The notes beneath the pieces are model-generated. The model was not told the origin of the DNA, made no database searches, and was given only the letters and a program-made list of their open reading frames with translations. Source: Meghimatium bilineatum (taxonomy: Eukaryota > Mollusca > Gastropoda > Stylommatophora > Philomycidae). From it: DNA of 64,000 nucleotides. How positions within the stretch are numbered: position 1 is the stretch's first letter; every line of letters starts with the position of its first letter. The translations under genes and the position numbers were made by a program. The stretch covers positions 7,672,010 through 7,736,009 of the forward strand of contig CM067310.1 in assembly GCA_034231615.1 (NCBI GenBank), in the 5' to 3' direction. Positions 3,376 through 37,512 of this stretch are shown piece after piece.

Positions 3376-3555
3376 CCAGAGAAACCTACTTTTGAGTCCA
3401 GAAGCAAGAAACCAAGGGATGAAAACGATGATGATCACAGAAAAAAGAAAAGACGGACAGACTCTGAAATTGTCCACAATTCCTATATAGACAACAAACA
3501 GATAACAGAAGAGGAAAGGGATAGAATCAAACAGATGATAGAATCAGAGCCAGAT
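3376..3555 (+). CDS. CTNNBL1: CTNNBL1 exon v1 (basic N-terminal region)
   Basis: Residues 1-60 of the visible protein. Acceptor TTTTTAATAG and donor GTAAGT bound 180 nt, phase 0 at both ends. It contains KKPRDENDDD and RKKKRR, matching the NLS-like region of CTNNBL1. The region is less conserved than the rest but correctly placed, and the reading frame runs directly into v2. Confidence 0.9.
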
Positions 3556-6500: not shown

Positions 6501-9500
6501 TGCTTGTGGAGAGTTCTGCAGCAACTATGATGCAGCTGTGAAAATAATAACAGAAACACTCTCATACATCACCAACAAATACAAAAATGTTCCAACACGT
6601 CCAAAAAAAACCCTTGTAATATTCATGGACTATCCAACAGCAGAGAAAACCATAAGCAACATACTTCAAGCTACAAAGATACTTACATCCTATGATATCA
6701 ATACTACACAATAGTGGATACCAGACCACACAGGTAGGCCTATCAGCGGGAATGAAAGTGCTGATAAACTGGCAAAAAAAAACCGGGAGCAAGCATGCAC
6801 CAACCAGGAATCTCTACCAACCTTAGAACAGATAAACACATCAGAAATAACTTTAAACAACAAAGGATGCACTGCTGGGCCACTGGCTCAAAAGGAAGAG
6901 TACAGAAATGTTCCAACCAAATCCACATGACAGCATAAATATACTAACACACAGCAAAGATCAAACCACAATATTTAGGCTACGAACAGCACATTTACAA
7001 CTTAACAAACACATATAAAGGTTTACCGCAGACCATTCTGCAATCATTGCAACAGACAAGAGGAGGAAACAGTAAAACATCACCTTATTGAATGCCCTTC
7101 ACTACAAGACCTACGAAAACAACTGTTACCACCAAACTCCTCCATCACTAATACCCTTTATACAGACACAACACAGTTGAAGAGGACATGCACCTACCAC
7201 CACTAGACACAGGGAAGATAGAGTGAAAGCTTGCAACCCCAGGTATTGGATAAGTAGGTAAGAAAATACACGTTAAGAAGACAGTTTGTTATATTGAGAA
7301 AATTCTTCTTCTTCTTCTTTCGTTCGCTAATAATGTCTATTATCTGCAGTTTTGTATATTGAGAAAATCAAGCTTTCTTACTTATCCATTCCACGGGGTT
7401 GCTAGCTTTCACTCTTTCATTCTTGTGCCTAGTGGTGGTAGGTGACAAAAGCATTAAATAACACTGACATTGGGAAAACAAAATAGATGATATTAGTATT
7501 CTCGCCCGTGTGTTGCGAGGGCTCAAAAGGGGAGCAAAGAATAGTAACACTGTTTACCTTCCATGCATGTCGTAACAGGCGACTAAGGAGGTTATGGGAT
7601 TGAGTTGGATGTCCCATCCCATATAGGGTCAGTGACCCAAAGCCATGCTGAAGTCGGATGTATCAGGCCGAATGGCGCAGATATCGCAGCAATGCTGTAA
7701 ACCATGACACAGCGCATTCTGTTCTCTGGACTACATCCTGCTAATCTGCAGGAGTTTGAGCACGAACGCAGAAGAAGAAGTATTCCTAAGTCTACAGTTA
7801 CTTTCAGAGATAGTCTAAAATGATACTTTCTTCACAGGCTGAAGCCATGGATGAAATAGGATTCAAGAAATTGCTTTTACATTTTGAAAAACAAGTGTAC
7901 AGAAACCAAGAAATGAGAATTAAGTACCCAGATTTGCCAGAAAAGTAAGGTTTTAATTTTGTATATTGTTAGTTATTTTGTAGAAATAACATCCTTACTG
8001 CACATCAAATCAACTGTCTATAAGTGCTCAGATCTCCTCACGATATCCTTACTGTACATCAAACCATCTGTCTATAAGTACTCGGATCTCCTCAAGATAT
8101 CCTTACTGCACATCAAACCATCTGTCTATAAGTACTCAGATCTCCTCAAGATATCCTTACTGTACATCAAACCATCTGTCTATAAGTACTCGGATCTCCT
8201 CAAGATATCCTTACTGCACATCAAACCATCTGTCTATAAGTACTCGGATCTCCTCAAGATATCCTTACTGCACATCAAACCATCTGTCTATAAGTACTCA
8301 GATCTCCTCAAGATATCCTTACTGTACATCAAACCATCTGTCTATAAGTACTCAGATCTCCTCAAGATATCCTTACTGTACATCAAACCATCTGTCTATA
8401 AGTACTCGGATCTCCTCAAGATATCCTTACTGCACATCAAACCATCTGTCTATAAGTACTCAGATCTCCTCAAGATATCCTTACTGTACATCAAACCATC
8501 TGTCTATAAGTACTCGGATCTCCTCAAGATATCCTTACTGCACATCAAACCATCTGTCTATAAGTACTCGGATCTCCTCAAGATATCCTTACTGCACATC
8601 AAACCATCTGTCTATAAGTACTCAGATCTCCTCAAGATATCCTTACTGTACATCAAACCATCTGTCTATAAGTACTCAGATCTCCTCAAGATATCCTTAC
8701 TGTACATCAAACCATCTGTCTATAAGTACTCGGATCTCCTCAAGATATCCTTACTGCACATCAAACCATCTGTCTATAAGTACTCAGATCTCCTCAAGAT
8801 ATCCTTACTGCACATCAAACCATCTGTCTATAAGTACTCGGATCTCCTCAAGATATCCTTACTGCACATCAAACCATCTGTCTATAAGTACTCGGATCTC
8901 CTCAAGATATCCTTACTGCACATCAAACCATCTGTCTATAAGTGCTCAGATCTCCTCAAGATATCCTTACTGCACATCAAACCATCTGTCTATAAGTGCT
9001 CAGATCTCCTCAAGATATCCTTACTGCACATCAAACCATCTGTCTATAAGTACTCAGATCTCCTCACGATATCCTTACTGTACATCAAACCATCTGTCTA
9101 TAAGTACTCGGATCTCCTCAAGATATCCTTACTGCACATCAAACCATCTGTCTATAAGTACTCAGATCTCCTCAAGATATCCTTACTGTACATCAAACCA
9201 TCTGTCTATAAGTACTCGGATCTCCTCAAGATATCCTTACTGCACATCAAACCATCTGTCTATAAGTACTCGGATCTCCTCAAGATATCCTTACTGCACA
9301 TCAAACCATCTGTCTATAAGTGCTCAGATCTCCTCAAGATATCCTTACTGCACATCAAACCATCTGTCTATAAGTGCTCAGATCTCCTCAAGATATCCTT
9401 ACTGCACATCAAACCATCTGTCTATAAGTACTCGGATCTCCTCAAGATATCCTTACTGTACATCAAGCCGTCTGTCTAGAAGTGCTCAGATCTCCTCAAG

Positions 9501-12500
9501 ATATCCATCAGTGTGTAGCGACTGACCACACTTACTCTGTGTTATTTTACCAGTCTGCTCTGGTTACCTGCAATTGTTTAGTCATGCCCCTCACAACATG
9601 ATGTTTCTGTAGTTTGCTCAGGGTTGCAGTTTCACAAGTATTTTTGTATATTCTTTTTTATATTGTATTTAATTGTAAAACTTAAAAATGGGTCAAAAAG
9701 TTATGGGAATCGACTTCATTGTACTCAGATTTTCCTATATGTACTCCACAGATGTCAAGCATCTTCTCTCTTGATCTTCCCCATACCCTTGTTGCTCTTC
9801 AACTTGCCTGTTATTACAATGTGTTCATCTTTCCTTATCTCATGATTTGTCCAAAAAATATGGACTGTCTGTTTCTGATGCAGATAAGCGTTTCTCTATC
9901 TGAATTACATTATTTCAAGATATCTTCATTACGCTTTTATCTGTCCATGGTTTTCTTAACATTCTTCTATAAAATCACATCTCTACTGTTTCAATATAAT
10001 CTTTCACGGTTCTGCTGAGTGTCCAAGATTCACTTCCATACGTCCGAGTTGTTCTGTATAGCTTATAAGTACTTTCTCATCTCACTTGACAAAGATGTAT
10101 CACAGACGGACTTCATATATTTCACTCGCAGCAATCTGTCTTGTTTCACATAATCCTAAGATTTTGACGTTCATTCTCAATATTTTCCAGTTTGACAACT
10201 TGCATGAGTGTTCTTACATTCCATGTTCTAATAACTATAGGCTTATTTTTATGTGTTGACTAGAGTGTCAGATGACAGTCTGGATGCACCTGTAGCACCT
10301 GCTGCTCCCTACTGAATGAGTCAGTTCTTTAACTCCCCTTTGACATTATTTAGAATAATAGAATTATTGTGTGTGCACATAATATTTGCTTTGCATTAAT
10401 AAATTCTTGAGACTAACGGGAATTGAACCAATCCGTTCAACAGCACCAAATCGCCTAGCAACTATCGAACACACGTTCTTCAGTACTTGACTAATCGCAT
10501 CTCCAAAAAAAGATGCAATTTCATCAAGCCATTCAAACCGTGCACACAAAGTCATCAGAACGGACAGATCGAGACAAGGACTATTACAGCAACAACAAAC
10601 ATCACATACAGGTTTTGAAATATCCTAAGTAACAACAAACATATAACATAATATCCGTATTTAGTTATACAAGGGCCGATAGGTCTTCTTGTAAACATGG
10701 ATAACATATATAGACAATACAATTTTGCTTCGAATAATTGTTTATACAAGTAAATTTAAGTAGGAAGCCAGAGGACAATTTATAAAAATTCTTGAGACTA
10801 ACGGGAATTAAATCAGTCCGTTCAACTGCACCAAATCGCATAGCAACTATTGAACACGCGTTCTTCAATACTTGACTAACCGCATCTCCAAAAAAAGATG
10901 AGATTTCATCAAGCCATTCAAACCATGCACACAAAGTCACCAGAACGGACCAATCGAGACAAGGACTATTACAACAACAACAAACATCCCATACAGGTTA
11001 ATACAGGTTAATAGTTTGCATTAATACTCACAGTATTTCAACCTCAGAATATTTTTTTCTTTTCATCCGTGATATAATTATTAATTGTTTTTTGCATGTC
11101 ATCCTAGATTTATGGAGACAGAGATTGAGCTGAATGAGGTTATTCATGAGATGCATGTGATGGCCACTGTACCAGAACATTACCAAATTCTTGTGGATCT
11201 CCGCAGTGTCCAGTCATTGCTGCAGTTGATTAGTCATGATAATACAGGTTATTGTCCACATTTTTTGTTTGTGTCTTTTCTATGACAGTATCTGCCAGTA
11301 TTCTTTCTGTGTGTGTGTGTTCATTCTCACACTTGGTTGGTTGGTTGGTTGCTGATCCAGCGGTCCATGGGCTCATGCCCTTTGACCCATAGATATTTTG
11401 TATTGGCATTATATTGCTGGGGAGTCTGTGGATTTTCGTCCCACCCTTGGCCAGAGCCAGAGAACAATTAACACACCACCAGGAAGGTAGGTTTCAACCT
11501 ATGAACTGCTCTGAGCCACTGCAGCCAAGATAGGGTTCACTGTGCTCATTCCCCGCCACCAATTGACTACTGGTTATGCCGAACTTCTCTATTGCTCCAG
11601 GCATGCAACCAAATGTTCAAGTCAAAAGGATTGTCACGTCCTGAGTCAGTGTGCCTCTATGATGGGCCTCAGCCATAAGAAAAACAGTGCTGTCAGTTTC
11701 CTCCTCCTCACTGCTGTGCAGCAAATCTCTGGCTCCCTCCCAACCACAGAGGGTGCATACATAAACAAAAATGAAAACAACATGGCATAAAATACATTGT
11801 AACAAAAAAAGAAAGTATGAGAGGCATAATTGTATAGATGACATGCCATGAAGCTTCTATAATAGATAACCTCAATATAACGGCATGTCATCTACTTAGG
11901 TTTTTCTGTTGCATGGGTGGTTTGTCTAATGGGCCATTGGTGAGACCCACAGACGCAAACCATGTGTAATTCTTACACTTCCTCCAGATCTTTTTTATAG
12001 CAGGACAAAGGTCTTACAAGATTTTCAGCGGATGTAGTCCAGAGAATGTAAATGCATTATGTCACTGTTTTATTTGCAGTAATTTCCAGACAGTAATTTC
12101 CAGACAGTAATTTCAAACTTGAGTGTTGGTACTAAGTCTTTCAGTGTTTTTACCACTTCCACTGAAAGGCATATTGATATTATAGTCAGCCTGCTGTACA
12201 GACAGCGTACACTGTATGGACACCTGAGGGTAAAAGAAAACGAGAAAGGTGTAAAGCAACCCTAAAAAACACCATACTTAAAGAAGGGAAAATAATAGGC
12301 TGCAAGATCATACAAAAACTAAAATTGCAGGCAACGGGCCACAACACATGGAGAATCAAAACCTCTGCTCCCCATCGAGGCCAGCACCTTGTAGTGGTGA
12401 TGGGGCTTAGTTCAGCCATCAGGGGCTGGAAAATAAGACTGGTTGGGCAGGACCATAGTCCGGCCCAAGTAAGCAGAGTGCTGAAGACGGAGGCAACCAG

Positions 12501-15500
12501 CCAAAAGGCGCACAGATAATCAGGATGCCACGCACAAAACACAATGGAAACATGTCTGCATCTATAAACAGTTATGGTGCCTGCTCTGTGGCGGACGTTC
12601 AGGCAGGGACGGTGCCGGGCCCTATACCTCGAAAGGTCCCAACCTTAGTTAAGCTCTATGGGACACTGTATGAACTACAAAAGACAGTGAGTTTTATTCA
12701 GGAGACAGAATTACAGATATAGACATGTTTCACGTGAACGAAAGAAGAAGAAGAAAAAACCTCTGCTCTATGTGCCACCAGCAGCACGAAAGGAACAAAT
12801 TAACTAACTAACTAACTGACCTGCTGATCATCATGGTCATGGATGCTTGATCTATTGTCACTGTTTTGCTTCTTTATCGTTGCGTACGCCCACATCTACC
12901 AGTGTATGTGGACATCTCTACAGAAGGATGTTCACTTTTCCTAACAGATAGTATGATAGCCATTTGTGTCTTTGCAGATGGTCAAGAAGTAGGCCAATGT
13001 AAATTGCTGAGACACAATAGTCCCCACGTTTCACACATAACTGCTTGTTGGGTAGATTTTAACAGATAGCAAAGACCGTCAAATAGGGAGGTAAAAAAAA
13101 AAACCATGGTATATGAAAGGTGTTTGTATACGAAACATAGAATGTGTTTCAGTCCAGTTTCTGTCAATGAGAAAAATACACTGAAATGTGCATGAGGTTG
13201 AGAATGAATGCAGAAGAAGAATCTTTCCTCTGTTTTCTCCATTCCGTTCATCATCATTAAGCTTCATCTCCGGAAACAAAAGTTGGTTGCAAGGGACCTC
13301 CAACATCCTCTGTCTTTTGCCCTGGTGATGCACTCTGATAGACTACTATGCTCATTTCATGTTTCATTCCCATTTGTATCTCTGCCCATCAACTCTACCT
13401 TCAAGTAAGGTCTTTAACAAGGTGTCTTTTATTAATATGTCCAAAATATTGTATTTGTTTCTATTTCCTTTAATAATAATTTTTTTATACACAATCTTGT
13501 CAGAACCTCTGTGTTTATTTTCTTCTCTTTCATGAAATTTCTCCTACTTCTTCTATAGACCCTCATCTCAAATTAGTCAATGCTATCTTGTGTTTGTTTT
13601 TTCATTGTTCATTTTTCAGACTCCATATTTTAATGTGACATTTTACGGTTCTCAGTTTTGGGTTGTTTGTGAATTGTTTGAATGTTAGCAGTTTAAAAAT
13701 GGTGTCACGGCAATCTGTCACAGAACTCACACGATTTTGAAACTTATTACTTCCCTCATGAGTAAGGGAGGGTAAAGACAGCAAGGAAGGGAACTGGCCA
13801 CCCCACCTAATAGCTGCTGCAGCTTAGTACATGATGAGTTATCTTCATCGTAGGTTCCTGCCGGTAGGACCTACCTTTACCATACTCCCCTCATACACTC
13901 GTTGGATTGATAAGAATACATTACCGGAGATCTACAATCATCCGATGGATTTCTAGAAGTTTCACCTATTCACTGATAAAAACATATAAAGAACACTGCT
14001 CCTCTTTTGTGCGCTCCACTTTTGTGCATAGGAGTGACCATATCTGCCATTATTTCATCACATTGTTCATCTGCTCCAAGATGGCATGTGCAGGAGGACA
14101 TCCTTGACAACAATATGGACAGGTTACAGGACAATGCTGTGGTTTAAAAAATATAATATCAAACTTTTTAATCTAAGTGCCTTTGTATATTTACTAGCAT
14201 CAAATCTGCTTCATTATTCTAGTAATTCTTATTCTCTTGTAGATTTGTAAATAAAGTTTGTGATTTCAGATATATCAATTGCCGTGATTGATTTGATACA
14301 AGAACTGACAGACCCAGACATTTTAAATGAAAATGAGGATACTGTGGGTGTATTGGTGGATGCCTTGGTTAGTAGTATTTTATGTGTTAGTGGATGCCTT
14401 GGTAGTGTGTATTGGTGGGTGTTTTGGTTAGTGTGTGTGTTGATGATTGCTGTGTTAAGTAGTGTTTTGTTTTGTGTGTGTTGATGGTTGCTGTTAAGTA
14501 GTGTTTTGTGTGTGTTGATGATTGCTGTGTTAAGTAGTGTTTGTGTGTGTTGATGATTGCTGTGTTAAGTAGTGTTTGTGTGTGTTGATGATTGCTGTGT
14601 TAAGTAGTGTTTGTGTGTGAGGAGGATTGCTGTGTTAAGTAGTGTTTTGTTTTGTGTGTGTTGATGGTTGCTGTTAAGTAGTGTTTTGTGTGTGAGGAGG
14701 ATTGCTGTGTTAAGTAGTGTTTTGTGTGTGTTGATGATTGCTGTTAAGTAGTGTTTTGTGTGTGAGGAGGATTGCTGTGTTAAGTAGTGTTTTGTGTGTG
14801 TTGATGATTGCTGTTGAGTAGTGTTTTGTGTGTGTTGAGGATTACTGTGTTAAGTAGTGTTTTGTGTGTGTTGAGGATTACTGTGTTAAGTAGTGTTTTG
14901 TTTTGTGTGTGTTGATGATTGCTGTTAAGTAGTGTTTTGTGTGTGTTGAGGATTACTGTGTTAAGTAGTGTTTTGTTTTGTGTGTGTTGAGGATTACTGT
15001 GTTAAGTAGTGTTTTGTTTTGTGTGTGTTGATGATTGCTGTTAAGTAGTGTTTTGTGTGTGTTGAGGATTACTGTGTTAAGTAGTGTTTTGTTTTGTGTG
15101 TGTTGATGATTGCTGTTACGTAGTGTTTTGTGTGTGAGGAGGATTGCTGTGTTAAGTAGTGTTTTGTGTGTGAGGAAGATTGTTGTGTTAAGTAGTGTTT
15201 TGTGTGTGAGGAAGATTGTTGTGTTAAGTAGTGTTTTGTTTTGTGTGTGAGGAAGATTGTTGTGTTAAGTAGTGTTTTGTGTGTGAGGAAGATTGTTGTG
15301 TTAAGTAGTGTTTTGTTTTGTGTGTGTTGATGATTGCTGTGTTAAGTAGTGTTTTGTGTGTGAGGAAGATTGTTGTGTTAAGTAGTGTTTTGTTTTGTGT
15401 GTGTTGATGATTGCTGTGTTAAGTAGTGTTTTGTTTTGTGTGTGAGGAGGATTGCTGTGTTAAGTAGTGTTTTGTTTTGTGTGTTGATGATTGCTGTTAA

Positions 15501-29504: not shown

Positions 29505-29538
<34 letters not shown>

Positions 29539-32500
29539 ATTTATTTATTTTGTTTCTCACTATTTACATACCACAATGTACACAGTTTTACTGTAATTTC
29601 CCGCTCATTCTATGATTGTAATATTTCAGGTGGAAAGACTGTTAGAGTTACATTTCAAGTACCTGGACAAAGTCAGACATTGTGATGACCAGATTGAGCG
29701 GGAGAAAATGGTAATCAAAACATTTGAATGTGTTTCTGCAGGCGACGGATATGTCTGGCCATTGCCACAAATGAAACAAAGATACAAAACATTTTCATTC
29801 TCTGAACTACCTGCCGAAAATTTAGTAGGACCATGGTCCTGTTACAAGTGAGATCCAGCAGGAGTTTGAGAATGAATGCTTAAGAAAAAGAAGACAAGTG
29901 TTATTGTTATTAAACCAACATCTTAATATGCTGGATAGACACATAAGTGCTCAGTGTTCTTCAAACAGATGTCTGATCTAATGTCGGCATATGTTTTGAA
30001 AATCTCATTTTCAAGTTTTCAACAAAGTGTTTTCTGCAACGCTTTACAAGAGCAGACAAAACACAATAGATAGATAGATTCTAGTTTATTTTAATATTCA
30101 GTATTTTGACCAAATAAACTCCTTCCCCTTCAAGCCATACATTATAGAGAAATGGGTACCACACCATTTTACATATTATGTACCTTCTTATGTTTCATGC
30201 TGTGTGTCGATGGTTACCTTGTTTTTCCACAGTCTTCTATTTTGTGTGCTGTCAATCATTTCCGATACCGATGTTCTTCCTTGCCACAATGATAGGCTGT
30301 CAAGCATCTTCTCTCTTGGTCTTCCCCTACCCCTCTTGTGCTTCAACTTGCCTGTTGTTACAATGTGTTCCATCTTTCCTCTTCTCATGATGTTTGTCCA
30401 AATAATGTGGACTGTCTCTGATGCGTATAAGAGCTCTCTTTTTGAGTTAACCTCTTTCATGATATATTCTTCTTGTCCGAATATTTGAATATGTTGATAT
30501 TGAGCTAATGACATAGAATTTTGAAATGTTTGATGGGTCAAATAATTAATATTTACGTTACCTGAAGCAATTTTATAATCCCAGAGTTATTTCAAGAGAA
30601 AATTTTTTATTTATTATAATGCTAGGCAGAATTTTTCTATATTTTCAAAATATTTGACACATTCATCTGTGAAAAATTTTGAATTAATCAAGTATTTACC
30701 CGCAACCTCAATCAGAACTTGCTAATTTTTATGCCTATATATCTAATGCCTATATATCTAATGCCTATATATCTAATGCCTATATATCTAATGCCTATAT
30801 ATCTAATGCCTATATATCTAATGCCTATATATCTAATGCCTATATATCTAATTCCTATATTGGAATAACAAGGTATCCTGGATGAGCTATTATTAGTAAT
30901 GCTATTGCTACGATTGCTGTATTACTGAAGTATCAAAGTGGTTATAATGCTGTCAAAGTTGGTTACCAAGAGTATGTTGTTGTTGTATCAATCCCCAGGA
31001 ATTATGAGCAATTAACTCTTAATTCCTATGTGCAATCGGGTGGTTTCCCAGCTTTTGTTCCATACCCAGAAGACTACAGCTCTCAGCCATTTACAATGAT
31101 GTGTGAAGAAGTCTCCTACCCAGAGGGGATAAATTCTAGGAATAATGTGGCTTTTCTACCTTTCCGCAAGATGCAGAATTGGAGTCATGAGTTTCATCTC
31201 ACCTGCCAAGAATTTCTTCATGTCAGATGCCCATAGCAACCCATTCTGGACCATGGTCACTGGGTATGAGTGAAGCAGCCAATTATGCATGTCTATCATC
31301 CATGAGAACGCTCCAATTATGCAGGACTATCATGTTTGCCTGATTCTGGGCTCTCCCAGGGAATAGTCACATCTGGCACAACACAAAGTTGCTTGTCACC
31401 CCACCCCTGACTCTGATGTTATGGGACCTGTTCATATCCGGGGCACCATTTTCATATTGGCAATTAGAATCATGTTCAGGATTGGAGTGATGTGCATTTC
31501 GCGTAAACTGAATGTTACATTACAAAGGGAAATATTATTGTACAGGTGAAATACTGTGCTGTTTTCACAAGAGGAAAGCCTCGCTATATTGGCATGTTAT
31601 CTACTGAGTTTAATACTGCATAATGGTCAGTCTGATAGTGAAACCTTTAGACCTTCCATGCGTGCCAAGGGTATAAAACAAATGTAATAATTATCAAACT
31701 TGGTCAGCAAAGTGTCCATGTTGTACAGCTGTAAATTGCTACTGGAATATGCAAACATTATTATATACATTTATTAACTGTTTATGTTCGGACTTCCTGA
31801 ACAGCGACTGAAACACAGCGGTGATGACCTGGATGATGATATCGAGGATGAGTTTTATCTCAGGAGGTTAGACTCGGGACTCTTCACTCTACAGCTGATT
31901 GACTACATCATGTTGGAGTCTTGTGCAAGTGGTGCATCATCAGTAAGTCTTCCCATTGAGTAAACAGTCTTCCCATTGAGTAAACAGTCTTCCCATTGAG
32001 TAAACAGTCTTCCCATTGAGTAAACAAAGTCTTCCCATTGAGTAAACAGTCTTCCCATTGAGTAAACAAAGTCTTCCCATTGAATAAACAGTCATCCCAT
32101 TGAATAAACAAAGTCTTCCCATTGAATAAACAAAGTCTTCCCATTGAATAAACAGTCATCCCATTGAATAAACAAAGTCTTCCCATTGAATAAACAAAGT
32201 CTTCCCATTGAATAAACAAAGTCTTCCCATTGAGTAAACAGTCTTCCCATTGAGTAAACAAAGTCTTCCCATTGAATAAACAGTCATCCCATTGAATTAA
32301 CATCTTCCAGATGTGATCACATGCATGTATGAATTGGGTATCCGTCCTCTGTCCTGAAGAGTTATCTTCATCCTGATGGCAGATTGCTTTACCGTTACCT
32401 CTTTGCCCTGATGGCCATTTGTTAAATGGAAGTAATTCTGTCTTCTTTTCACTTTATCCCAAAGTGCCTTGCAATTTCGGGTGTAGAAGTCTTCCCTGAA

Positions 32501-35500
32501 GATAGCCATTTTGTGTGCTTCATGCATGTTTGTTTGTGTGGCTTCTTTTATTTGTATAATCTATCTTTTGTATGGTCGGCCTCTGACTTTGTATCCATTA
32601 TCTTTGTATAGTGTTGGTTTTTGGGGAATGCTGACAGTAGTCTGGTGGCATGTGCAAAGGATTTAAATTGTTTGTCTTCTGTTATAATTTAGAACAGGTA
32701 TTGTGTTAGTAAAAAAAAAAAACAAAGCCTGTGGAAATGATGAAATCTCCGGTGAAATGCTAAAAGCAGCAGATGACAACTCCTTGGGCCACTACTTGCT
32801 ATAATGAATGCTGTATAGCAGACAGAATCCCCTCCAAAAGACTGGAAAGATGGTGTAATCTTCAAACTACCAAAAAAAGGTGACCTGTCAGATTGCAACA
32901 ACTGGCGTGGAATTACTTTACTATCAACCCCAGTAAAACCTTTTTGTAGCATCTTAATGGAAAGAATGAAAATTGCTGTTGATCAAAGACTTAGAGAAGA
33001 ACAAGCCGGCTTTAGACCTAACCGTCTAAATAAGTAAGACCATCCAGGAACTAAAGCTGCAGGCAGCGGACCGCATCATATGGAGAACCAAATCCTCTGC
33101 CCCATGTGTCGCTTGCAGCACGAAAGGAACAAACTAACTAAACTAACTTATTGTGTTAGTCTCTTGATGTTTACAAACCTCATCATCATCATCAAGTGCC
33201 GTCTCCGCAACGAAGGTTGGCTGCAACGTATCTCCAACATCTCCTGTCTCTTGTCTTGTTGGTGCACTCTGCTAGACTGTAACCTGTCCATCGTGTAATG
33301 TTACTCTCCCACTTGTATCTCTGCCTACCTCTTGCTCGCTTCCCTTTGACTTTACCCTCAAGTAAAGTCTTCAATAGGGTGTCATGTCTTTTAATGTGTC
33401 CAAAGTACTTTATTTGCCTGATCTTTATTTCTCTTAGTAGTTCTTCATATTAAGTGTCTTTAGCACCTCTTTATTTGTTTTCTTCTCTTTCCATGATGTT
33501 CTCCCTATTCTTCTATATACCCACATCTCAAAGGCATCAATTTTGTCTTCTAATTGTTTATTTAGTGTCCATGTTACAAACCTAAACAGTTACAATTCTA
33601 AAAGTTCTGTAAAGTTGAAATGGGAGACATCCACCATCAATGGGTAGAGTTACTGACACAATCTCTGAGAGATTATCTTTATATTTGTATCCAGACATGT
33701 GGGTGTTGAGGATAATGAACATATCGACATGTCAATATGTTGTCATTGAAGGGCATGATTACAGTGTCAATAAGTACATGGGGGATCGATCGGATATAGT
33801 TAATGGGTTGAGGAACAACATCAGCTCAGAAAAATGTGAAATGTTGAGCATGGTCGCTCTCAATACTGGTGATTATTGGTGTAAAGATTGTAACATCCTG
33901 TACAGTGAAACATAAATAAATGAAGAGTGATAAACCAACATCGAACAGGAATCGGAACATCTATAGGCTTGTCAAGTGTGCACTGCTGATAACCTGCGCT
34001 CATAACTCATGCTGCCATTTCTGATTCTATCTCATTGTTGAATCAAGAATTCTACGATGTTAAGTGAAAGTTTTAAAATTAATGTTTGAATTATTTCAAG
34101 ATTTTACTAAATAAATCAAGTATTTGATTTCATCTGCTCATTATCATGTATTCCCAGATTCGAGCTAGAGTTATGCAGATTCTTAACATGCGAGGTGGCT
34201 CAGTTAAGGTTATCAGAGGAGTCATGCGAGGTTTGTAATATTTGGTATTCATTGAAGTTTATCTGGTACTCTTGTTGGACAGTGTATGTAATGTTGGAGT
34301 TATGTACAGTTTGTATGTAATGTTGAAGTTATGTACAGTTTGTATGTAATGTTGAAGTTATGTACAGTTTGTATGTAATGTTGAAGTTATGTACAGTTTG
34401 TATGTAATGTTGAAGTTATGTACAGTTTGTATGTAATGTTGAAGTTATGTACAGTTTGTATGTAATGTTGAAGTTATGTGCAGTTTGTATGTAATGTTGA
34501 AGTTATGTGCAGTTTGTATGTAATGTTGAAGTTATGTACAGTTTGTATGTAATGTTGAAGTTATGTACAGTTTGTATGTAATGTTGAAGTTATGTACAGT
34601 TTGTATGTAATGTTGAAGTTATGTACAGTTTGTATGTAATGTTGAAGTTATGTACAGTTTGTATGTAATGTTGAAGTTATGTACAGTTTGTATGTAATGT
34701 TGAAGTTATGTGCAGTTTGTATGTAATGTTGAAGTTATGTACAGTTTGTATGTAATGTTGAAGTTATGTACAGTTTGTATGTAATGTTGAAGTTATGTAC
34801 AGTTTGTATGTAATTTTGGAGTTATGTACAGTTTGTATGTAATGTTGAAGTTATGTACAGTTTGTATGTAATGGAGTTATGTACAGTTTGTATGTAATGG
34901 AGTTATGTACAGTTTGTATGTAATGGAGTTATGTACAGTTTGTATGTAATGTTGAAGTTATGTACAGCTTGTATGTAATTTTGGATGTAATGTTGAAGTT
35001 ATGTACAGCTTGTATGTAATTTTGGAGTTATGTACAGTTTGTATGTAATGTTGAAGTTATGTACAGTTTGTATGTAATGTTGAAGTTATGTACAGTTTGT
35101 ATGTAATGTTGAAGTTATGTGCAGTTTGTATGTAATGTTGAAGTTATGTTATGTGCAGTTTGTATGTAATGTTGAAGTTATGTACAGTTTGTATGTAATG
35201 TTGAAGTTATGTACAGTTTGTATGTAATGTTGAAGTTATGTACAGTTTGTATGTAATGTTGAAGTTATGTACAGTTTGTATGTAATGTTGAAGTTATGTA
35301 CAGTTTGTATGTAATGTTGAAGTTATGTACAGTTTGTATGTAATGTTGAAGTTATGTACAGTTTGTATGTAATTTTGGAGTTATGTACAGTTTGTATGTA
35401 ATGTTGAAGTTATGTACAGTTTGTATGTAATGGAGTTATGTACAGTTTGTATGTAATGGAGTTATGTACAGTTTGTATGTAATGGAGTTATGTACAGTTT

Positions 35501-37512
35501 GTATGTAATGTTGAAGTTATGTACAGCTTGTATGTAATTTTGGATGTAATGTTGAAGTTATGTACAGCTTGTATGTAATTTTGGAGTTATGTACAGTTTG
35601 TATGTAATGTTGAAGTTATGTACAGTTTGTATGTAATGTTGAAGTTATGTACAGTTTGTATGTAATGTTGAAGTTATGTGCAGTTTGTATGTAATGTTGA
35701 AGTTATGTTATGTGCAGTTTGTATGTAATGTTGAAGTTATGTACAGTTTGTATGTAATGTTGAAGTTATGTACAGTTTGTATGTAATGTTGAAGTTATGT
35801 ACAGTTTGTATGTAATGTTGAAGTTATGTACAGTTTGTATGTAATGTTGAAGTTATGTACAGTTTGTATGTAATGTTGAAGTTATGTACAGTTTGTATGT
35901 AATGTTGAAGTTATGTACAGTTTGTATGTAATGTTGAAGTTATGTACAGTTTGTATGTAATGTTGAAGTTATGTACAGTTTGTATGTAATGTTGAAGTTA
36001 TGTACAGTTTGTATGTAATGTTGAAGTTTGATTTTTGAATATTGAAGAGGTACACTTAGTATGATGTGTTTTGTTTACAATGAATTTACTTTGCTGCAGT
36101 GACTTGCTCTAGCTTAAATTCTAATGTGTATATTTTATTTTCTATTAGTAATAATGCTGCCTGCCAGGCATGTCATAACAGTCAATTAAGGAGGTTGGCT
36201 ACTGAATTGAAAGACGTTAGTGCCATTGCATCATAAAGGGCTCAGAATTCATAGAGGATTGACAAATTCCTGCATAGGATAGGTTTGATCACTGACATTG
36301 GATGTGCTGAGCCAATGGTACAAATAATAGACTGAAAAGACATCGGAGATTGACCATTCTATTTGGATTATCCCCATATGTACTCTGTCCATCTCAATGA
36401 AGCGCTGCTTGCTGAGAGTACTGCTCCTCAAACAGCTAACACATACGCCATAGCTTCAAGCAATAATCCCCTGAGATATCAGAAAAAAATCCACTTTATT
36501 AACAAGACGATGTGAACCAGAATAAAAACTGTGACATCTGGAGCACAAAGCGAATGGCATAACAACTACACCAGGGAGATCCCCGTTCCATCAACCACAT
36601 TGTCCTGGGCTTGCACAAACTATGACAAATATAAATAACCAAAATATCAGAGGATGTCCGACAAAATGGAAAGTGCCGCAGTAACCAGACAAATAAGAGA
36701 TAAATATGAAGTTAATTATAAAGGTTACTGAATATAGCCTAACTATCAATATAAATCAGAAATAACAATTAAAAAAAAGAACAAAGACAATTTTCAATGT
36801 GTCTGTCCTATTGACAAAGGTCCCAATAGGACAGACACGTTGAAAATTGCTTTGTTCTTTGTTTTATTGTTATTTCTGATTTATTTATATTGATAGTTAG
36901 GCTATATTCAGTAACCTTTATAATTAACTTCGTATTTATAAACTCTGACAATGTCTTCACTAGAACAAATGTCAGAGATACATCAATATGACACTGAAAG
37001 TACTCTACAACCTGGCACAGGATATATCAATATGACACTGAAAGTACTCTACAACCTGGCACAGGAAATGCTTCAGAGATATATCAATATGACACTGAAA
37101 GTACTCTACAACCTGGCACAGGAAATGCTTCAGAGATATATCAATATGAAACTGAAAGTACTCTACAACCTGGCACAGAGGATGCGTCAGAGATATATCA
37201 ATATGACACTGAAAGTACTCTACAAACTCATACTCTTTCTGGATTCTGTATTTCAATGTCATGATTAAGATATGCAAGCTAGAAACATGGTAGGTTTTTT
37301 TTCCTTCTAAAACTACTTGTAGAATGTGAACATTTCCCATGATTAAGAAATTCAGGACATTTATGTGATACTATGATTTAAAATGGTAGTTTTAGAAAGT
37401 GTTGTTGTGGTCTACTTTTGCAGAATACGCTGGCAATATTGGAGATGCCAAGGACAGAGCATCAAAAGAAGCGGAGAAGGACAGAATTCTAGCGCTGGTA
37501 GACAAGTTTTGA
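3376..37512 (+). CDS. CTNNBL1: CTNNBL1 gene, beta-catenin-like protein 1 (15 visible exons, spliced)
   Basis: Joining 15 exons (listed separately as v1-v15) gives a continuous 1650-nt frame: 549 residues and a TGA stop. The order and sequence follow animal CTNNBL1 throughout (the human protein has 563 residues as I recall). There is a basic N-terminus resembling a nuclear localisation signal, then armadillo-type helices, an acidic stretch and the conserved C-terminal tail. The known role is in the nucleus: it is an ARM-repeat protein of the CDC5L/Prp19 spliceosome complex that binds NLS-bearing partners such as CDC5L and PRP31. All junctions are GT-AG and phase-compatible. A short first coding exon is missing, either upstream of the window or not recognised. 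No obvious AATAAA follows the stop within ~180 bp. Introns are loaded with tandem arrays and retroelements. Confidence 0.96.
3590..3840 (-). pseudogene. LINE 3' fragment with cysteine/histidine tail
   Basis: The minus-strand peptide contains CPCGSGTQTPEHILQDCP, the Cx1C...H...C zinc-binding tail common after RNase H in I-clade-like LINE ORF2 proteins. It starts inside the CTNNBL1 intron just after the v1 donor and lacks all upstream domains. A similar piece is at 56050-56340. Confidence 0.65.
3985..4280 (+). repeat. SINE-A copy with tRNA-like head
   Basis: The head has an A-box-like TGGCCTAGTTGATAG and a B-box-like GGTTCAAAGCC, as expected for an internal RNA polymerase III promoter derived from a tRNA. 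The body ends CCATGGGACATTCCTTTACT. This is one of the most complete copies in the window. Confidence 0.75.
4346..4502 (+). repeat. SINE-B short variant
   Basis: Same short variant as at 2478-2622, including the CATTGGCGCAAATAAAACGG block and a GAAGAAGAAGA tail. Confidence 0.65.
4680..7250 (+). pseudogene. Degenerate LINE ORF2: reverse transcriptase to RNase H and tail
   Basis: Frameshifted plus-strand translation shows RT motifs (RPISLTSNISKFAERML near 4690; FVDLMQAYDKVWRKG near 4895; an ADDL-like remnant near 5150), then an RNase H remnant (IQGYTDRSAF near 6410; WIPDHTGRPISGNESADKLA near 6715) and a C-terminal RLRTAH-type tail near 6980. Many stops and frameshifts make it inactive. Between RT and RNase H it is interrupted by a 47-bp tandem array. 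Confidence 0.8.
5794..6223. repeat. 47-bp tandem array inside a LINE (9 copies)
   Basis: Unit starts CAAGAAATAAAGTAAAAATG and ends GCAGAATAAATAAA. Copies start at 5794, 5841, 5888 and so on to 6170, then a partial unit. One copy has a single base change (ATCCCC at ~6094). Because 47 is not a multiple of three and the unit lacks stops on the minus strand, all three minus frames stay open. These are artefacts, not genes. Confidence 0.95.
7505..7783 (+). repeat. SINE-B copy, near full length
   Basis: Begins around TGTTGCGAGGGCTCAAAAGG and runs through the GGCGACTAAGGAGGTTATGG and CATCCCATATAGGGTC blocks to AGGAGTTTGAGCACGAACGC plus GAAGAAGAAG. Closely similar to 20322-20599. It ends ~55 bp before the v2 acceptor. 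Confidence 0.8.
7838..7944 (+). CDS. CTNNBL1: CTNNBL1 exon v2
   Basis: Visible residues 61-96. Acceptor TTTCTTCACAG, donor GTAAGG, 107 nt, starts phase 0 and ends two bases into a lysine codon. The peptide contains LLLHFEKQVYRNQEMRIKYP, matching the conserved start of the folded CTNNBL1 domain. Confidence 0.96.
7974..9510. repeat. 54-bp minisatellite (~28 units) after exon v2
   Basis: Unit begins AAGATATCCTTACTGCACAT and ends ACTCGGATCTCCTC. It starts ~30 bp after the v2 donor. Units differ at a few fixed sites (CTGCAC/CTGTAC; TACTCA/TACTCGG/TGCTCA), which reveals a six-unit higher-order repeat. The 506-residue open frame across it repeats an 18-residue peptide and is explained by 54 being a multiple of three. 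Confidence 0.97.
9740..10250 (-). pseudogene. LINE 3' fragment (post-RT region)
   Basis: Plus-strand text contains reverse-oriented blocks shared with 30190-30545 and 46725-47270 (CAAGCATCTTCTCTCTTG, CTTCAACTTGCCTGTT), which encode the basic GRGRPRE-like and MWFYRRM-like segments of LINE C-termini. Here they are broken by many stops. Confidence 0.6.
10400..10612 (-). repeat. tRNA-like interspersed repeat, copy 1 of a direct pair
   Basis: On the minus strand it holds GGTTCAATTCCCGTTAGTCT, a good B-box and acceptor-stem-like end. Almost the same ~210 bp occurs at 10787-10998 in the same orientation. A short further copy of the end is at ~62195-62225. Most likely a SINE or tRNA-derived repeat, not a functional tRNA, since no complete cloverleaf is evident. 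Confidence 0.5.
10787..10998 (-). repeat. tRNA-like interspersed repeat, copy 2
   Basis: Second copy of the repeat at 10400-10612, about 387 bp downstream and a few percent diverged. It has the same tRNA-like 3' motif on the minus strand. Confidence 0.5.
11108..11247 (+). CDS. CTNNBL1: CTNNBL1 exon v3
   Basis: Visible residues 96-142. Acceptor GTCATCCTAG; donor GTTATT, a non-consensus GT; 140 nt. The first base completes the split lysine codon from v2 and the last base opens an aspartate codon. Contains FMETEIELNEVIHEMHVMAT and LLQLISHDNT, close to the vertebrate protein. Confidence 0.96.
11325..11420 (+). repeat. SINE-D fragment with TTGG run
   Basis: A (TTGG)n stretch followed by CTGATCCAGCGGTCCATGGG and CATGCCCTTTGACCCA. 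The same block recurs reversed at ~49304-49360 and forward at 58010-58070, so it is a short dispersed repeat. Confidence 0.6.
12371..12757 (+). mobile_element. SINE-C insertion with target-site duplication
   Basis: Flanked by direct repeats AACCTCTGCTC (12360-12370 and ~12758-12768) that split an older repeat also seen intact at 33036-33150. It starts CCCATCGAGGCCAGCACCTT and ends in a GAAGAAGAAGAA tail, so it inserted by target-primed reverse transcription. A second copy at 52570-52925 has ~127 bp more in the middle. Confidence 0.8.
13249..13650 (-). pseudogene. LINE 3' fragment ending in ATG/CAT tail
   Basis: Reverse-oriented 3' end of the LINE family at 38261-38964: after the CATCATCATT tail come degraded versions of the C-terminal blocks (ARGRQRY- and RTRDRCWRY-like). 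It has many stops. Confidence 0.6.
13745..13890 (+). repeat. SINE-A 3' fragment
   Basis: Matches the distal half of SINE-A (GGAAGGGAACTGGCCACCCC, then CTTCATCGTAGGTTCCTGCC). The tRNA-like head is absent. Confidence 0.65.
14270..14367 (+). CDS. CTNNBL1: CTNNBL1 exon v4
   Basis: Visible residues 143-175. Acceptor TTTGTGATTTCAG, donor GTTAGT, 98 nt, ends phase 0. Contains ISIAVIDLIQELTDPDIL and VGVLVDAL, matching an ARM helix pair. The frame stays open across the donor into the following array until a TGA at 14482. Confidence 0.96.
14368..17510. repeat. ~3.1-kb array of ~36-bp units after exon v4
   Basis: The consensus unit is GAAGATTGCTGTGTTAAGTA followed by GTGTTTTGTGTGCGAG, with 30-40-bp variants (GTGTTGATGATT types). 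It starts directly at the v4 donor. The first ~80 bp contain altered copies of the exon end (GTGGATGCCTTG) and donor. The array ends ~45 bp before exon v5, so it fills almost the whole intron. Open frames on both strands are repeat artefacts. Confidence 0.97.
17555..17648 (+). CDS. CTNNBL1: CTNNBL1 exon v5
   Basis: Visible residues 176-206. Acceptor ATACTTGCAG, donor GTGAGT, 94 nt. Encodes LDGQVVAVLVNNLDRLDENV, matching the conserved VDGQVVALL-type ARM segment, and ends one base into an alanine codon completed by v6. Confidence 0.96.
17720..17950 (+). repeat. Dispersed repeat E fragment
   Basis: Contains GGTTAGCAGATAACCAAGAT followed by a GATGCACCCTGG block, shared with 56390-56700 and with the ~1.1-kb insertion at 59405-60530. 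Type unknown; the insertion copy has a GAA tail and a target-site duplication, which suggests a retroposon. Confidence 0.6.
18836..19060 (+). repeat. Stem-loop repeat family copy
   Basis: Contains GATAAAGGTCCCAATTGGAC followed by GACACGTTGACAATTG, then a stretch ending GTCGGACATCCTCCG. Both parts recur at 36640-36943, where they form a long hairpin, and in pieces at 22385 and 39320. It is non-coding. Confidence 0.55.
19318..19600 (+). repeat. SINE-B copy
   Basis: Diverged but near full-length SINE-B (GCATGGCATAAGAGGTGACT, CCCATCACATAGGTC, ACCACATCCTGCTAGCC, then GGAGTTTGAGAATGAAC). Confidence 0.7.
19795..19886 (+). CDS. CTNNBL1: CTNNBL1 exon v6
   Basis: Visible residues 207-237. Acceptor GATTCTCTCCAG, donor GTAATA, 92 nt, ends phase 0. 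Encodes FKPEMCADAAQQGLLPWLLK, matching the highly conserved RPEMCTEGAQQGLLQWLLK-type segment. Confidence 0.97.
19887..20085. repeat. 36-bp array (~5 units) starting at the v6 donor
   Basis: Unit ATTTTAGATTTGTTTTGTTA then ACATTTACTACGCTAA. The first intron bases (GTAATACTTTATTTTAG) resemble the unit, so the array appears to begin at the donor itself. Confidence 0.85.
20322..20599 (+). repeat. SINE-B copy, near full length
   Basis: Starts GTGTTGCCGGGGCCCGAAAG and ends AGGAGTTTGAGAACGAACGC plus AGAAGAAG. It is the best preserved of the family in this window and useful as a reference copy. Confidence 0.8.
20670..21175 (+). pseudogene. LINE C-terminal zinc-finger end with internal array
   Basis: Forward copy of the LINE tail seen reversed at 27835-28490 and 37595-37945. 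It covers the AAQQ...R-A-KSQ region, a C2H2 finger start (PCLNCARTFSA), then nine copies of a 31-bp unit (GTGGTCTCATTAACCATCTA...), then the 3' end with GGACGAACAACAACA. The array (~20815-21080) arose from the bases coding the LISHL part of the finger. Confidence 0.75.
21219..21291 (+). CDS. CTNNBL1: CTNNBL1 exon v7
   Basis: Visible residues 238-261. Acceptor TTTCTTTTCAG, donor GTGAGA, 73 nt. Encodes PFDQNKLYCSEILAILLQD, nearly identical to vertebrate CTNNBL1. The last G opens a glutamate codon completed by v8. The exon begins ATG AAG, but this methionine is internal. Confidence 0.97.
21655..21800 (-). pseudogene. LINE 3' end fragment
   Basis: Reverse copy of the GAT-tailed LINE 3' end (GCCTGCAACAAACCTCCAAC, CACTCTGCTAGACTGTAACC), matching 33185-33590 and 38261-38964. 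Confidence 0.65.
21801..22885. other. Intron, mostly unassigned
   Basis: I recognise only a hairpin-element end near 22280-22350 (TAATGTACTATTGTTACTGA, related to the end at 3942) and a stem-loop repeat trace near 22385-22410 (CAACTGGGACCTTTATATC). The rest shows nothing I can support. Confidence 0.4.
22886..22944 (+). CDS. CTNNBL1: CTNNBL1 exon v8
   Basis: Visible residues 262-281. Acceptor TTTTCTTTGCAG, donor GTAAGT, 59 nt, ends phase 0. Encodes NRQLLGESDGIDILLQQLA, matching the ENRELLGELDGIDVLLQQL-type segment. Confidence 0.97.
23001..23042 (+). repeat. Duplicated 3' end of exon v8 with its donor
   Basis: 42 bp with three differences from 22923-22964, 78 bp downstream. It repeats the last 22 exon bases, the GTAAGT donor and the next 20 intron bases. 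Use of the second donor would add 78 nt containing an in-frame TAG at 22963, so it is not expected to make a normal protein. Confidence 0.9.
23100..23900. other. Intron without recognised features
   Basis: AT-rich intron with short chance open frames. I see no exon or known repeat here. Confidence 0.4.
23917..24483 (+). repeat. 74-bp array of duplicated 3' splice sites before exon v9
   Basis: Each unit holds ~40 bp of intron end (TTGATTCCACTTATTT... TTCTGTAG) plus ~30-33 bp copied from the start of exon v9 (GTCTTCAAAAAACATGATCC...). Decoy exon starts lie at 23957, 24039, 24114, 24188, 24262, 24336 and 24410; the true one is 24484. The last six spacings are 75 then 74 bp each. Confidence 0.97.
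24484..24632 (+). CDS. CTNNBL1: CTNNBL1 exon v9
   Basis: Visible residues 282-331. Acceptor CATCTTGTAG, donor GTAATG, 149 nt, ends two bases into an arginine codon. Encodes VFKKHDPGTKDEMELMENLF and FLRGEGLQLMNLML, as in the conserved central ARM region. This is the only one of eight similar copies that carries the rest of the exon and a donor. Confidence 0.97.
24868..25150 (+). repeat. SINE-A copy, full length
   Basis: Head AACCTAGTTGATAGTGAGGT with B-box-like GGTTTGAAACC, body through CATGAGTTAGGGAAGGTAAA, end GTCATGTGACAAACCTTTTC. Same orientation as the gene. Confidence 0.75.
25721..25899 (+). CDS. CTNNBL1: CTNNBL1 exon v10
   Basis: Visible residues 331-390. Acceptor TAACGTTACAG, donor GTATGT, 179 nt. 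Contains REKKLSRNSAIKVLNHAM and CQKFVEILGLRSLFPLFMK, strongly conserved. Ends one base into a glutamate codon. Confidence 0.97.
25900..26655 (+). repeat. 31-bp array (~24 units) starting at the v10 donor
   Basis: Unit TATGTGTTTGATATTTGATT then GTTCTTGAAAG. The real junction is CTTGAAG/GTATGTG; each unit ends CTTGAAA/GTATGTG or GTGTGTG, so it copies the exon end and donor. Open minus frames of 325 and 277 residues are artefacts of the stop-free unit. Confidence 0.96.
26735..27130 (+). pseudogene. LINE 3' fragment with local 66-bp-type tandem copies
   Basis: Degraded copy of the end of the LINE at 50224-51438 (TGGTTTGGTTACCTTATGAG against TGGTTCGGTCACCTTATGAG; CAACCATCATTCACC near the end). 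The first part is present almost three times in tandem (26750-26890). Inactive. Confidence 0.75.
27276..27373 (+). CDS. CTNNBL1: CTNNBL1 exon v11
   Basis: Visible residues 391-423. Acceptor TGTTCAATTAG, donor GTAGGT, 98 nt, ends phase 0. Encodes HICSILASMLRNCQGTPRQR and KFTENDHEK, matching the SILASLLRNLRG...KFTEND segment. Confidence 0.97.
27399..27668 (+). repeat. SINE-B copy
   Basis: Diverged near-full-length copy beginning CCGAGTGGTGCCAGAGCTCA and ending GATGTTTGAGAATGAACGCA plus GAAGATGAGGAAGAAG. It begins 25 bp after the v11 donor. Confidence 0.7.
27835..28490 (-). pseudogene. LINE C-terminal region with C2H2 zinc finger
   Basis: The minus strand reads YASETWTVYRRHVKKLN, then LGHLVRM-like remnants, GGQRKRYKDSLKNSLKAF, and ends in a C2H2 finger (CLNCPRTFKARIGLISHLRT). 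This is the usual C-terminus of one LINE ORF2 family. It is 5'-truncated with one frameshift between the halves. Relatives at 20670, 37595 and 61390. Confidence 0.8.
28495..28620. repeat. 31-bp tandem repeat (4 units)
   Basis: Unit AAGTTCTATATCACTGCCCT then AATTTAGTGTC, four slightly different copies. Confidence 0.9.
28842..29025 (+). repeat. Direct repeat, copy 1, upstream of exon v12
   Basis: A 184-bp segment starting GAGAATGAATGCTTAAGAAA, nearly identical to 29868-30051 (offset 1026 bp). In the downstream copy it continues a SINE-B variant tail; here the SINE part is missing. The two copies bracket exon v12. Confidence 0.9.
29502..29537. repeat. TA dinucleotide microsatellite
   Basis: An uninterrupted run of TA dinucleotides ~35 bp long, ~95 bp upstream of exon v12. 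Confidence 0.95.
29630..29710 (+). CDS. CTNNBL1: CTNNBL1 exon v12
   Basis: Visible residues 424-450. Acceptor TAATATTTCAG, donor GTAATC, 81 nt, phase 0 at both ends. Encodes VERLLELHFKYLDKV, matching VDRLMELHFKYL. Skipping it would keep the frame. Confidence 0.96.
29735..29882 (+). repeat. SINE-B short variant directly after exon v12
   Basis: Contains GGCCATTGCCACAAATGAAA and AGGAGTTTGAGAATGAATGC, the short-variant landmarks. It starts ~25 bp into the intron. Confidence 0.65.
29868..30051 (+). repeat. Direct repeat, copy 2, downstream of exon v12
   Basis: Partner of 28842-29025. Only a few differences were seen (for example AAACGAAC against AAACCAAC), so the duplication is recent. Confidence 0.9.
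30190..30545 (-). pseudogene. LINE 3' fragment
   Basis: The minus strand reads ELLYASETVHIIWTNIMRRG and KHKRGRGRPREKMLDSLSLW, the post-RT basic region of LINE ORF2. Truncated 5' and slightly rearranged. Confidence 0.7.
30725..30860. repeat. 15-bp tandem repeat (8 units)
   Basis: Unit TGCCTATATATCTAA, eight nearly perfect copies. Confidence 0.95.
30861..31804. other. Intron without recognised features
   Basis: No exon, LINE motif or repeat recognised. The short open frame near 31030-31236 has no similarity that I know and no splice context. Confidence 0.4.
31805..31942 (+). CDS. CTNNBL1: CTNNBL1 exon v13 (acidic region)
   Basis: Visible residues 451-496. Acceptor TTCCTGAACAG, donor GTAAGT, 138 nt, phase 0 at both ends. 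Contains DDLDDDIEDEFYLRRLDSGL, matching the acidic DTEEEFYLRRLDAGL region of CTNNBL1. Confidence 0.96.
31943..32305 (+). repeat. 20-24-bp array starting at the v13 donor
   Basis: Unit GTCTTCCCATTGAGTAAACA with an AA-extended form, ~16 copies. The first copy overlaps the donor (TCA/GTAAGTCTTCCC), so the array begins at the splice site. Retention of this intron would stop at a TAA within the first unit. Confidence 0.95.
32335..32400 (+). repeat. SINE-A 3' fragment
   Basis: Short match to the SINE-A end (GAAGAGTTATCTTCATCCTG ATGGCAGATTGCT). Confidence 0.45.
32715..33035 (+). pseudogene. LINE fragment: start of reverse transcriptase domain
   Basis: The peptide includes NDEISGEMLKAADD and FKLPKKGDLSDCNNWRGITL, then EEQAGFRPNR, the N-terminal RT motifs. 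Cut off before the catalytic aspartates. Confidence 0.8.
33036..33150 (+). repeat. Short dispersed repeat (target of SINE-C elsewhere)
   Basis: GCTGCAGGCAGCGGACCGCA ... CAGCACGAAAGGAACAAACT. The same sequence at 12296-12800 is split by SINE-C, so this copy shows the uninterrupted state. It may encode a LINE C-terminal CPMCRLQHERNKL finger-like end. Confidence 0.6.
33180..33590 (-). pseudogene. LINE 3' end with GAT tail
   Basis: The minus strand reads LLEGKVKGKRARGRQRYKWE ... RTRDRRCWRYVAANLRCGDGT-like, then TGATGATGATGA. Same family and same 3' end as 38261-38964. Confidence 0.8.
34158..34230 (+). CDS. CTNNBL1: CTNNBL1 exon v14
   Basis: Visible residues 497-520. Acceptor TGTATTCCCAG, donor GTTTGT, which is weak, 73 nt. 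Encodes IRARVMQILNMRGGSVKVIR, matching VHQILNMRGSSIKIVR. The last G opens a glutamate codon. Confidence 0.96.
34280..36028 (+). repeat. 29-bp array (~60 units) after exon v14
   Basis: Unit GTTATGTACAGTTTGTATGT then AATGTTGAA. Starts ~50 bp after the donor. Each unit carries CA/GTTTGTATG, like the real donor AG/GTTTGTAAT. A 559-bp block (with GTAATGGAGTT and GTTATGTTATGTGCAG variants) is repeated once inside the array (around 34801-35359 and 35360-35918). Confidence 0.96.
36640..36943. mobile_element. Long palindromic element
   Basis: Arms 36701-~36815 and ~36826-36943 are reverse complements over ~115 bp with few differences (TAACTATCAATATAAAT; AGGACAGACACGTTGAAAAT). The centre holds CAAAGGTCCCAATAGG. 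The left flank (GTCCGACAAAATGG ... GCAGTAACCAG) recurs at 19000 and 39345. No coding capacity; probably a hairpin MITE or foldback element. Confidence 0.85.
36950..37232. repeat. 57-bp tandem repeat (~5 units) before exon v15
   Basis: Unit AGATATATCAATATGACACT ... ACCTGGCACAGGAAATGCTT; the second unit is shortened. 57 is a multiple of three, which explains the 105-residue open frame. It ends ~190 bp before the last exon. Confidence 0.92.
37424..37512 (+). CDS. CTNNBL1: CTNNBL1 exon v15, terminal
   Basis: Visible residues 521-549 and TGA. Acceptor CTACTTTTGCAG. Encodes EYAGNIGD then ASKEAEKDRILALVDKF, aligned to the EYAENIGDG...RILGLLENF end of the human protein. Confidence 0.96.

What the first reader, a model, noticed from the sequence alone, without database searches (positions are those of the whole stretch)
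7838..37423. Minisatellites in one gene are anchored to exon-intron junctions
Arrays begin at or within ~50 bp of the donors of v2, v4, v6, v10, v13 and v14; the v8 junction is duplicated once and the v9 acceptor seven times. Unit lengths differ (54, ~36, 36, 31, 20-24, 29, 74 bp), so the arrays arose independently, yet they share the position. This suggests a process that duplicates sequence at splice junctions, or a selective filter that tolerates arrays only next to intact sites. I know of no described mechanism giving this pattern.
Basis: partly seen in the sequence, partly recalled or inferred. Interest (0 to 1): 0.85.

Follow-up and report, generated by a model that had tools for sequence, protein, structure and literature searches.

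The report
Repeat arrays seeded at splice junctions
In this mollusc gene, and two to three times more often than expected in a sample of other genes of the same genome, short tandem DNA repeats lie right beside the points where coding pieces are spliced together, a pattern already described in amphioxus as 'mirages' and probably tolerated because duplications there leave the gene readable.

Summary
The gene is CTNNBL1 (Pfam CTNNBL, E=5e-176) of a mollusc. Of 15 intronic arrays, 6 start within 64 bp of a 5' splice site (6 against 1.75 expected at 100 bp, p=0.001); the v9 acceptor is copied seven times and the v8 donor once. Exon sequence lies in the unit at v4, v8, v9 and v10; at v2 and v14 this is only suggestive, at v6 and v13 it was not found.

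Arrays of three or fewer copies pile up as much as long ones, so the excess lies in seeding, not growth. Dilution by interspersed repeats explains part. Breakpoints look random relative to the splice site.

It is not undescribed: these are the 'mirages' of lancelet genes (PMC3087553, PMC3902484). What appears new is the mollusc occurrence and a quantified junction excess on both intron ends.

The parts
7838..7944 (+). CTNNBL1 exon v2
   Evidence: GT-AG, frame continuous
7991..9506 (+). 54-bp array, 28 copies, starts 46 bp after the v2 donor; unit resembles the exon v2 end only weakly (rank p=0.06)
14270..14367 (+). CTNNBL1 exon v4
14368..17554 (+). intron 4, nearly all minisatellite (14432-17495, 36-bp unit, 83 copies); first degenerate copies repeat the v4 exon|intron junction
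   Evidence: score 37 against shuffle maximum 31; rank p=0.009
19897..20079 (+). 36/73-bp array starting 10 bp after the v6 donor; no exon sequence detected in the unit
22923..23044 (+). v8 exon end plus donor, duplicated once (second copy at donor +56)
   Evidence: score 69, shuffle maximum 23
23925..24513 (+). 74-bp units carrying the v9 acceptor and the first ~30 bp of exon v9; seven upstream acceptor copies (TRF array 23973-24513)
   Evidence: (score 83, shuffle maximum 26)
24484..24632 (+). CTNNBL1 exon v9
25721..25899 (+). CTNNBL1 exon v10
25893..26655 (+). 31-bp array, 25 copies, unit = last 7 bp of exon v10 + donor + intron; 24 copies carry a donor-like site that is weaker than the real one
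   Evidence: (score 49, shuffle maximum 31)
31945..32308 (+). 22/42/64-bp array starting 2 bp after the v13 donor; no exon sequence in the unit
34283..36028 (+). 29-bp array, 60 copies, starts 52 bp after the v14 donor; unit weakly resembles the v14 junction (rank p=0.06)
3377..37511 (+). CTNNBL1 gene, exons v1-v15 (further 5' exon(s) not placed)

Best explanation
These are mirage-type minisatellites. In this genome short tandem duplications of some tens of bases arise often. One that straddles a splice junction (part exon, part intron) does no harm, because the exon-proximal original stays intact and the extra copies fall inside the intron; one within coding sequence is removed by selection. 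Tolerated two-copy seeds then expand and are homogenised like any minisatellite, and each has its own unit because each is an independent event with its own breakpoints. Shown: junction-derived units, random breakpoints relative to the splice site, the same excess for arrays of three or fewer copies, an excess near both intron ends in other genes. Inferred: that splicing uses the exon-proximal site, that seeds form by slippage or template switching, and that the seeding rate (or retention) is about two times higher in the roughly 100 bp next to exons than in deeper intron.
For: Exon-carrying units at v4, v8, v9, v10 and in the sample at L029, L041, L061, L070/L149, L094, L104, L109, for example a 73-bp unit of 63 exon + 10 intron bases in four copies (L149) and a near-perfect 60-bp two-copy case (L104). 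30 arrays near against 9.68 expected over 98 donors and 97 acceptors; 27 against 8.93 without overlapping loci, 26 against 7.68 without loci whose match holds a stop. Arrays of three or fewer copies 16 against 4.65 and median copies near 2.85, far 3.05. Spanning arrays 7 against 2.9-4.8 expected from uniform seeding; exonic share of the unit uniform, KS p=0.41, n=11. Mirages in lancelet behave alike: both boundaries, unit length differing by locus, splicing reported regular (passages).
Against: Most near arrays (28 of 38 junction-array pairs) show no exon sequence. Arrays of one gene are not independent, so Poisson P values are optimistic. Splice sites in the sample were chosen by a weight matrix, not by transcripts.
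Confidence: 0.7

Rival explanations
1. Substrate age: sequence next to exons is older and freer of transposon insertions, so it has had more time to gather arrays; there is no junction-specific seeding.
For: Interspersed-repeat fraction is 0.22 within 100 bp and 0.42-0.45 beyond 200 bp, and array density is lower in repeats (0.49/kb) than in other far sequence (0.69-0.71/kb). The excess fades over the same 100-150 bp.
Against: Near density is 1.82/kb, 2.6 times that of far non-repeat sequence; with class-specific densities 19 against 6.8-6.9, P=1e-4.
Confidence: 0.3
2. Growth until blocked: arrays start anywhere in an intron and spread until selection stops them at the exon, so edges pile up there.
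For: In CTNNBL1 several of the largest arrays abut exons (28, 83, 25 and 60 copies), and intron 4 is nearly filled by one array.
Against: In the sample arrays of three or fewer copies show the same excess and near arrays are not larger (median copies 2.85 against 3.05, p=0.58). It does not explain exon sequence inside units.
Confidence: 0.1
3. Splice-site-directed duplication: a process tied to the splice signal itself (spliceosome, RNA-templated repair, or selection for extra U1 or acceptor sites) makes or keeps the copies.
For: Copies of strong sites persist: eight acceptors at v9, donor-like sites in 24 copies at v10. Excess at both intron ends.
Against: Breakpoints are not at the splice site; the v10 copies all carry a weaker site than the original; v6 and v13 units hold no exon sequence.
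Confidence: 0.08
4. Chance in one minisatellite-rich gene.
For: Tandem repeats are abundant: 9634 of 32487 intron bases here; the gene does not differ clearly from others (p=0.10).
Against: Permutation p=0.001 at 100 bp and an independent sample of other genes.
Confidence: 0.04

Closest known systems
'Mirages' of lancelet (cephalochordate) genes: Adh3, globins BflGb6 and BflGb9, troponin C, PGBD5
   Same: Minisatellite-like tandem duplications of exon-intron boundaries, at 5' and 3' boundaries, unit length differing by locus, splice signals in many copies (passages of PMC3087553 section 16, and PMC3902484 section 17).
   Different: Here in a mollusc, in many introns of one gene and in a sample of other genes, with a measured excess of arrays near both intron ends; in lancelet length instability, somatic instability and regular splicing are reported, none of which could be tested here.
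Intron creation by internal tandem duplication of AG/GT sites (Rogers 1989; Gao and Lynch 2009; Zhuo et al. 2007)
   Same: Tandem duplication of sequence holding splice signals.
   Different: Those models make new introns from duplicated exon sequence; here copies lie inside existing introns and no new intron is shown. Known only from the citing text of PMC3087553; the papers themselves were not read.
Ordinary intronic minisatellites (VNTRs)
   Same: Head-to-tail units of 10-100 bp with expansion and homogenisation.
   Different: No junction-derived unit is expected; the position next to splice sites is the distinguishing feature.

Membership tests
Mirage (boundary-spanning minisatellite) | Tandem repeat whose unit spans an exon-intron boundary | tested here: met
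   v8, v9, v10 and, with a more diverged unit, v4; L029, L041, L061, L070/L149, L094, L104, L109 in other genes. Not met at v6 and v13; undecided at v2 and v14.
Mirage (boundary-spanning minisatellite) | Both 5' and 3' boundaries can be duplicated | tested here: met
   Donors v4, v8, v10; acceptors v9, L041, L109
Mirage (boundary-spanning minisatellite) | Unit length differs from locus to locus (independent origins) | tested here: met
   Periods 29-74 bp in CTNNBL1; 39-73 bp among spanning donor arrays of the sample
Mirage (boundary-spanning minisatellite) | Normal splicing is kept | not testable with these tools
   No transcripts available; the CTNNBL1 frame is continuous when the exon-proximal sites are used
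Mirage (boundary-spanning minisatellite) | Length polymorphism, including somatic instability | not testable with these tools
   One assembly only
Mirage (boundary-spanning minisatellite) | All cases seen in print are cephalochordate | tested here: not met
   50 matches to the molluscan-type haemocyanin domain PF14830 in two clusters; 25 chromosome-size contigs, 1.61 Gb. Taxon is not part of the definition.
Directed duplication at splice sites | Breakpoints fixed at the splice site | tested here: not met
   Exonic share of the unit spread over 0.17-0.98, KS p=0.41, n=11, some values read by eye
Intron gain by tandem duplication | A duplicated copy is used as a new exon or intron border | not testable with these tools
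   No transcripts

The most novel reading that the evidence does not exclude
Tandem duplication is seeded preferentially within about 100 bp of exons in animals as distant as lancelets and molluscs, through something exon-proximal (for example co-transcriptional R-loops or nucleosome-bounded replication errors), making junction minisatellites a general and continuous supply of spare splice sites and of raw material for new introns.
Probability: 0.2. Interest if true: 0.75.

Novelty: new member of a known kind. Interest (0 to 1): 0.45.

Why it matters
If the excess survives full repeat masking, it shows that minisatellites are born non-randomly at splice junctions, gives a measurable rate for the long-discussed route from junction duplication to new introns and alternative splice sites, and supplies a mollusc model in which fresh two-copy cases (such as L104) can be followed. 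If it does not, it still shows that mirages are not a lancelet peculiarity.

Tried and rejected
A first count of the sample did not turn minus-strand loci round; it mixed donors and acceptors and was replaced. The impression from this gene that donors are favoured did not hold: 17 of 98 donors against 13 of 97 acceptors, p=0.55. Strand composition of units gave nothing beyond what the flanking splice signals supply. L081 passes the rank test, but its alignment is mostly AT-rich intron, so I do not count it as exon-derived. v10 fails the exon-only rank test because only 7 exon bases are in the unit; TRF and carry that case. Contigs C32 and C27 were looked at as possible mitochondrial genomes and are not recognisably so. 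Rfam found nothing in the window. The earthworm metallothionein paper PMC12783039 (passages) has intronic minisatellites but none described at junctions. One further gene family (PF00176) did not complete and not asked again.

Paper searches on the point (held library only): apart from the two lancelet papers the listings showed no paper whose title or abstract start describes boundary-spanning minisatellites; only PMC3087553, PMC3902484 and PMC12783039 were opened, as passages. The original Adh paper (PMC117041) is not held.

Full report
What the gene is. Fifteen exons v1-v15 lie on the + strand between 3377 and 37511; the joined frame has no stop and all 14 introns are GT-AG. The window is G000:C13:7672010-7736009 in a 1.61-Gb assembly with 25 contigs of 25-136 Mb and 7 small ones. 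A molluscan-type haemocyanin domain gives 50 matches in two clusters, so the animal is a mollusc; the species was not identified.

Observation. TRF finds 15 arrays of period 9 or more in the 14 introns, 9634 of 32487 intron bases. Six begin within 64 bp of a donor (v2 +46, v4 +64, v6 +10, v10 -7, v13 +2, v14 +52) and one ends 30 bp inside exon v9 from the acceptor side. Random re-placement of each array in its own intron gives 1.15 expected at 65 bp (p=5e-5, threshold chosen afterwards), 1.75 at 100 bp (p=0.001) and 0.89 at 50 bp against 4 observed (p=0.005); acceptors alone do not stand out in this gene. Eight arrays are far from any junction.

Do the units derive from the junction? A 50-base junction segment was aligned to its own intron against 50 shuffles: v4 37 (maximum 31), v8 69 (23), v9 acceptor 83 (26), v10 49 (31) and v13 36 (26, intron part only) exceed every shuffle; v2, v6 and v14 do not. 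A second test ranks the match of each array unit to its own junction against those of other exons: v4 and v9 p=0.009, v2 and v14 p=0.06, v6 and v13 none; v10 fails it because only 7 exon bases are in the unit. So four junctions (v4, v8, v9, v10) are clearly copied, two are undecided, two are not.

Genome sample. Exons were found with the myosin head and kinesin profiles (60 loci, two near-identical copies dropped), splice sites chosen by weight matrix after turning minus-strand loci (58 donors, 57 acceptors). Arrays with near edge under 100 bp: donors 13 against 3.08 (P=2e-5), acceptors 6 against 3.0 (P=0.08). With the 100-bp test fixed beforehand (note), the top 40 stop-free dynein AAA_6 exons gave donors 4 against 1.6 (P=0.08) and acceptors 7 against 2.0 (P=0.0045). 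Together 30 against 9.68 (P=1e-7). Leaving out overlapping loci (27 against 8.93) or loci whose match holds an in-frame stop (26 against 7.68) changes little, nor do stricter TRF scores (14 against 4.18 at score 200 or more). Arrays of one gene are not independent, so these P values are optimistic.

Which process? Growth until blocked by the exon would favour long arrays near exons; instead arrays of three or fewer copies show the same excess (16 against 4.65) and copy number near and far is alike. Repeats were detected only against 322 kb of sequence, so this rival is reduced, not removed. Breakpoints are not tied to the splice site: among 11 junction-carrying units the exonic share runs from 0.17 to 0.98 with mean 0.47 (KS against uniform p=0.41; some values read by eye), and spanning arrays number 7 against 2.9-4.8 expected from uniform seeding. 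One search prints examples: a 73-bp unit of 63 exon and 10 intron bases in four copies (L149), a 47-bp unit at L061 with a short direct repeat shared by exon and donor, and a nearly perfect two-copy 60-bp duplication (L104).

Reading. Spanning arrays are what random small duplications plus a harmless-position filter would give: the exon-proximal original stays, copies fall in the intron. On top of that there is a roughly two-fold excess in the first 100 bp of intron (23 against 9.7), about equal at both ends (17 of 98 donors, 13 of 97 acceptors, p=0.55), whose cause (seeding or sequence age) is open. CTNNBL1 is at the high end but not clearly different from other genes (8 of 28 against 30 of 195 junctions, p=0.10; donors alone 6 of 14 against 17 of 98, p=0.04).

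Known? Yes in kind. Minisatellite-like duplications of exon-intron boundaries are called mirages in amphioxus Adh3 and globin genes (PMC3087553, passages) and are reported there also for troponin C and PGBD5 (PMC3902484, one passage); both boundaries take part, unit length varies by locus and splicing is said to be regular. Ten searches of the held library listed no other animal group with them; that library lacks most subscription papers. I therefore file this as a new member of a known kind, found in a mollusc, with the first count against distance that I could find.

Noticed in passing
window 14368-17554: Intron 4 of CTNNBL1 is almost wholly one 36-bp minisatellite (14432-17495), leaving about 60 bp at each end.
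   Followed up: partly
window 50386-51438: Reverse-transcriptase open frame (Pfam RVT_1, E=1.1e-19) of a non-LTR-like element; a second, related-looking frame at 38238-38957 has no Pfam match.
   Followed up: partly
window 20805-21084: A 31-bp array in intron 6 whose unit looks, by eye, like part of a dispersed repeat that also occurs near 27880 and 37640; some arrays thus arise inside transposons.
   Followed up: no
window 43700-45343: A 45-bp array of 37 copies outside the gene keeps long open frames on both strands, a trap for gene prediction.
   Followed up: no
L063/L064 and L067/L068 (G000:C21 near 50.19 and 50.31 Mb): Kinesin exons occur in two near-identical copies about 120 kb apart: a recent duplication or an assembly duplicate.
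   Followed up: no
G000:C15:48.69-49.24 Mb and C22:44.15-44.27 Mb: Clusters of molluscan-type haemocyanin domains.
   Followed up: no
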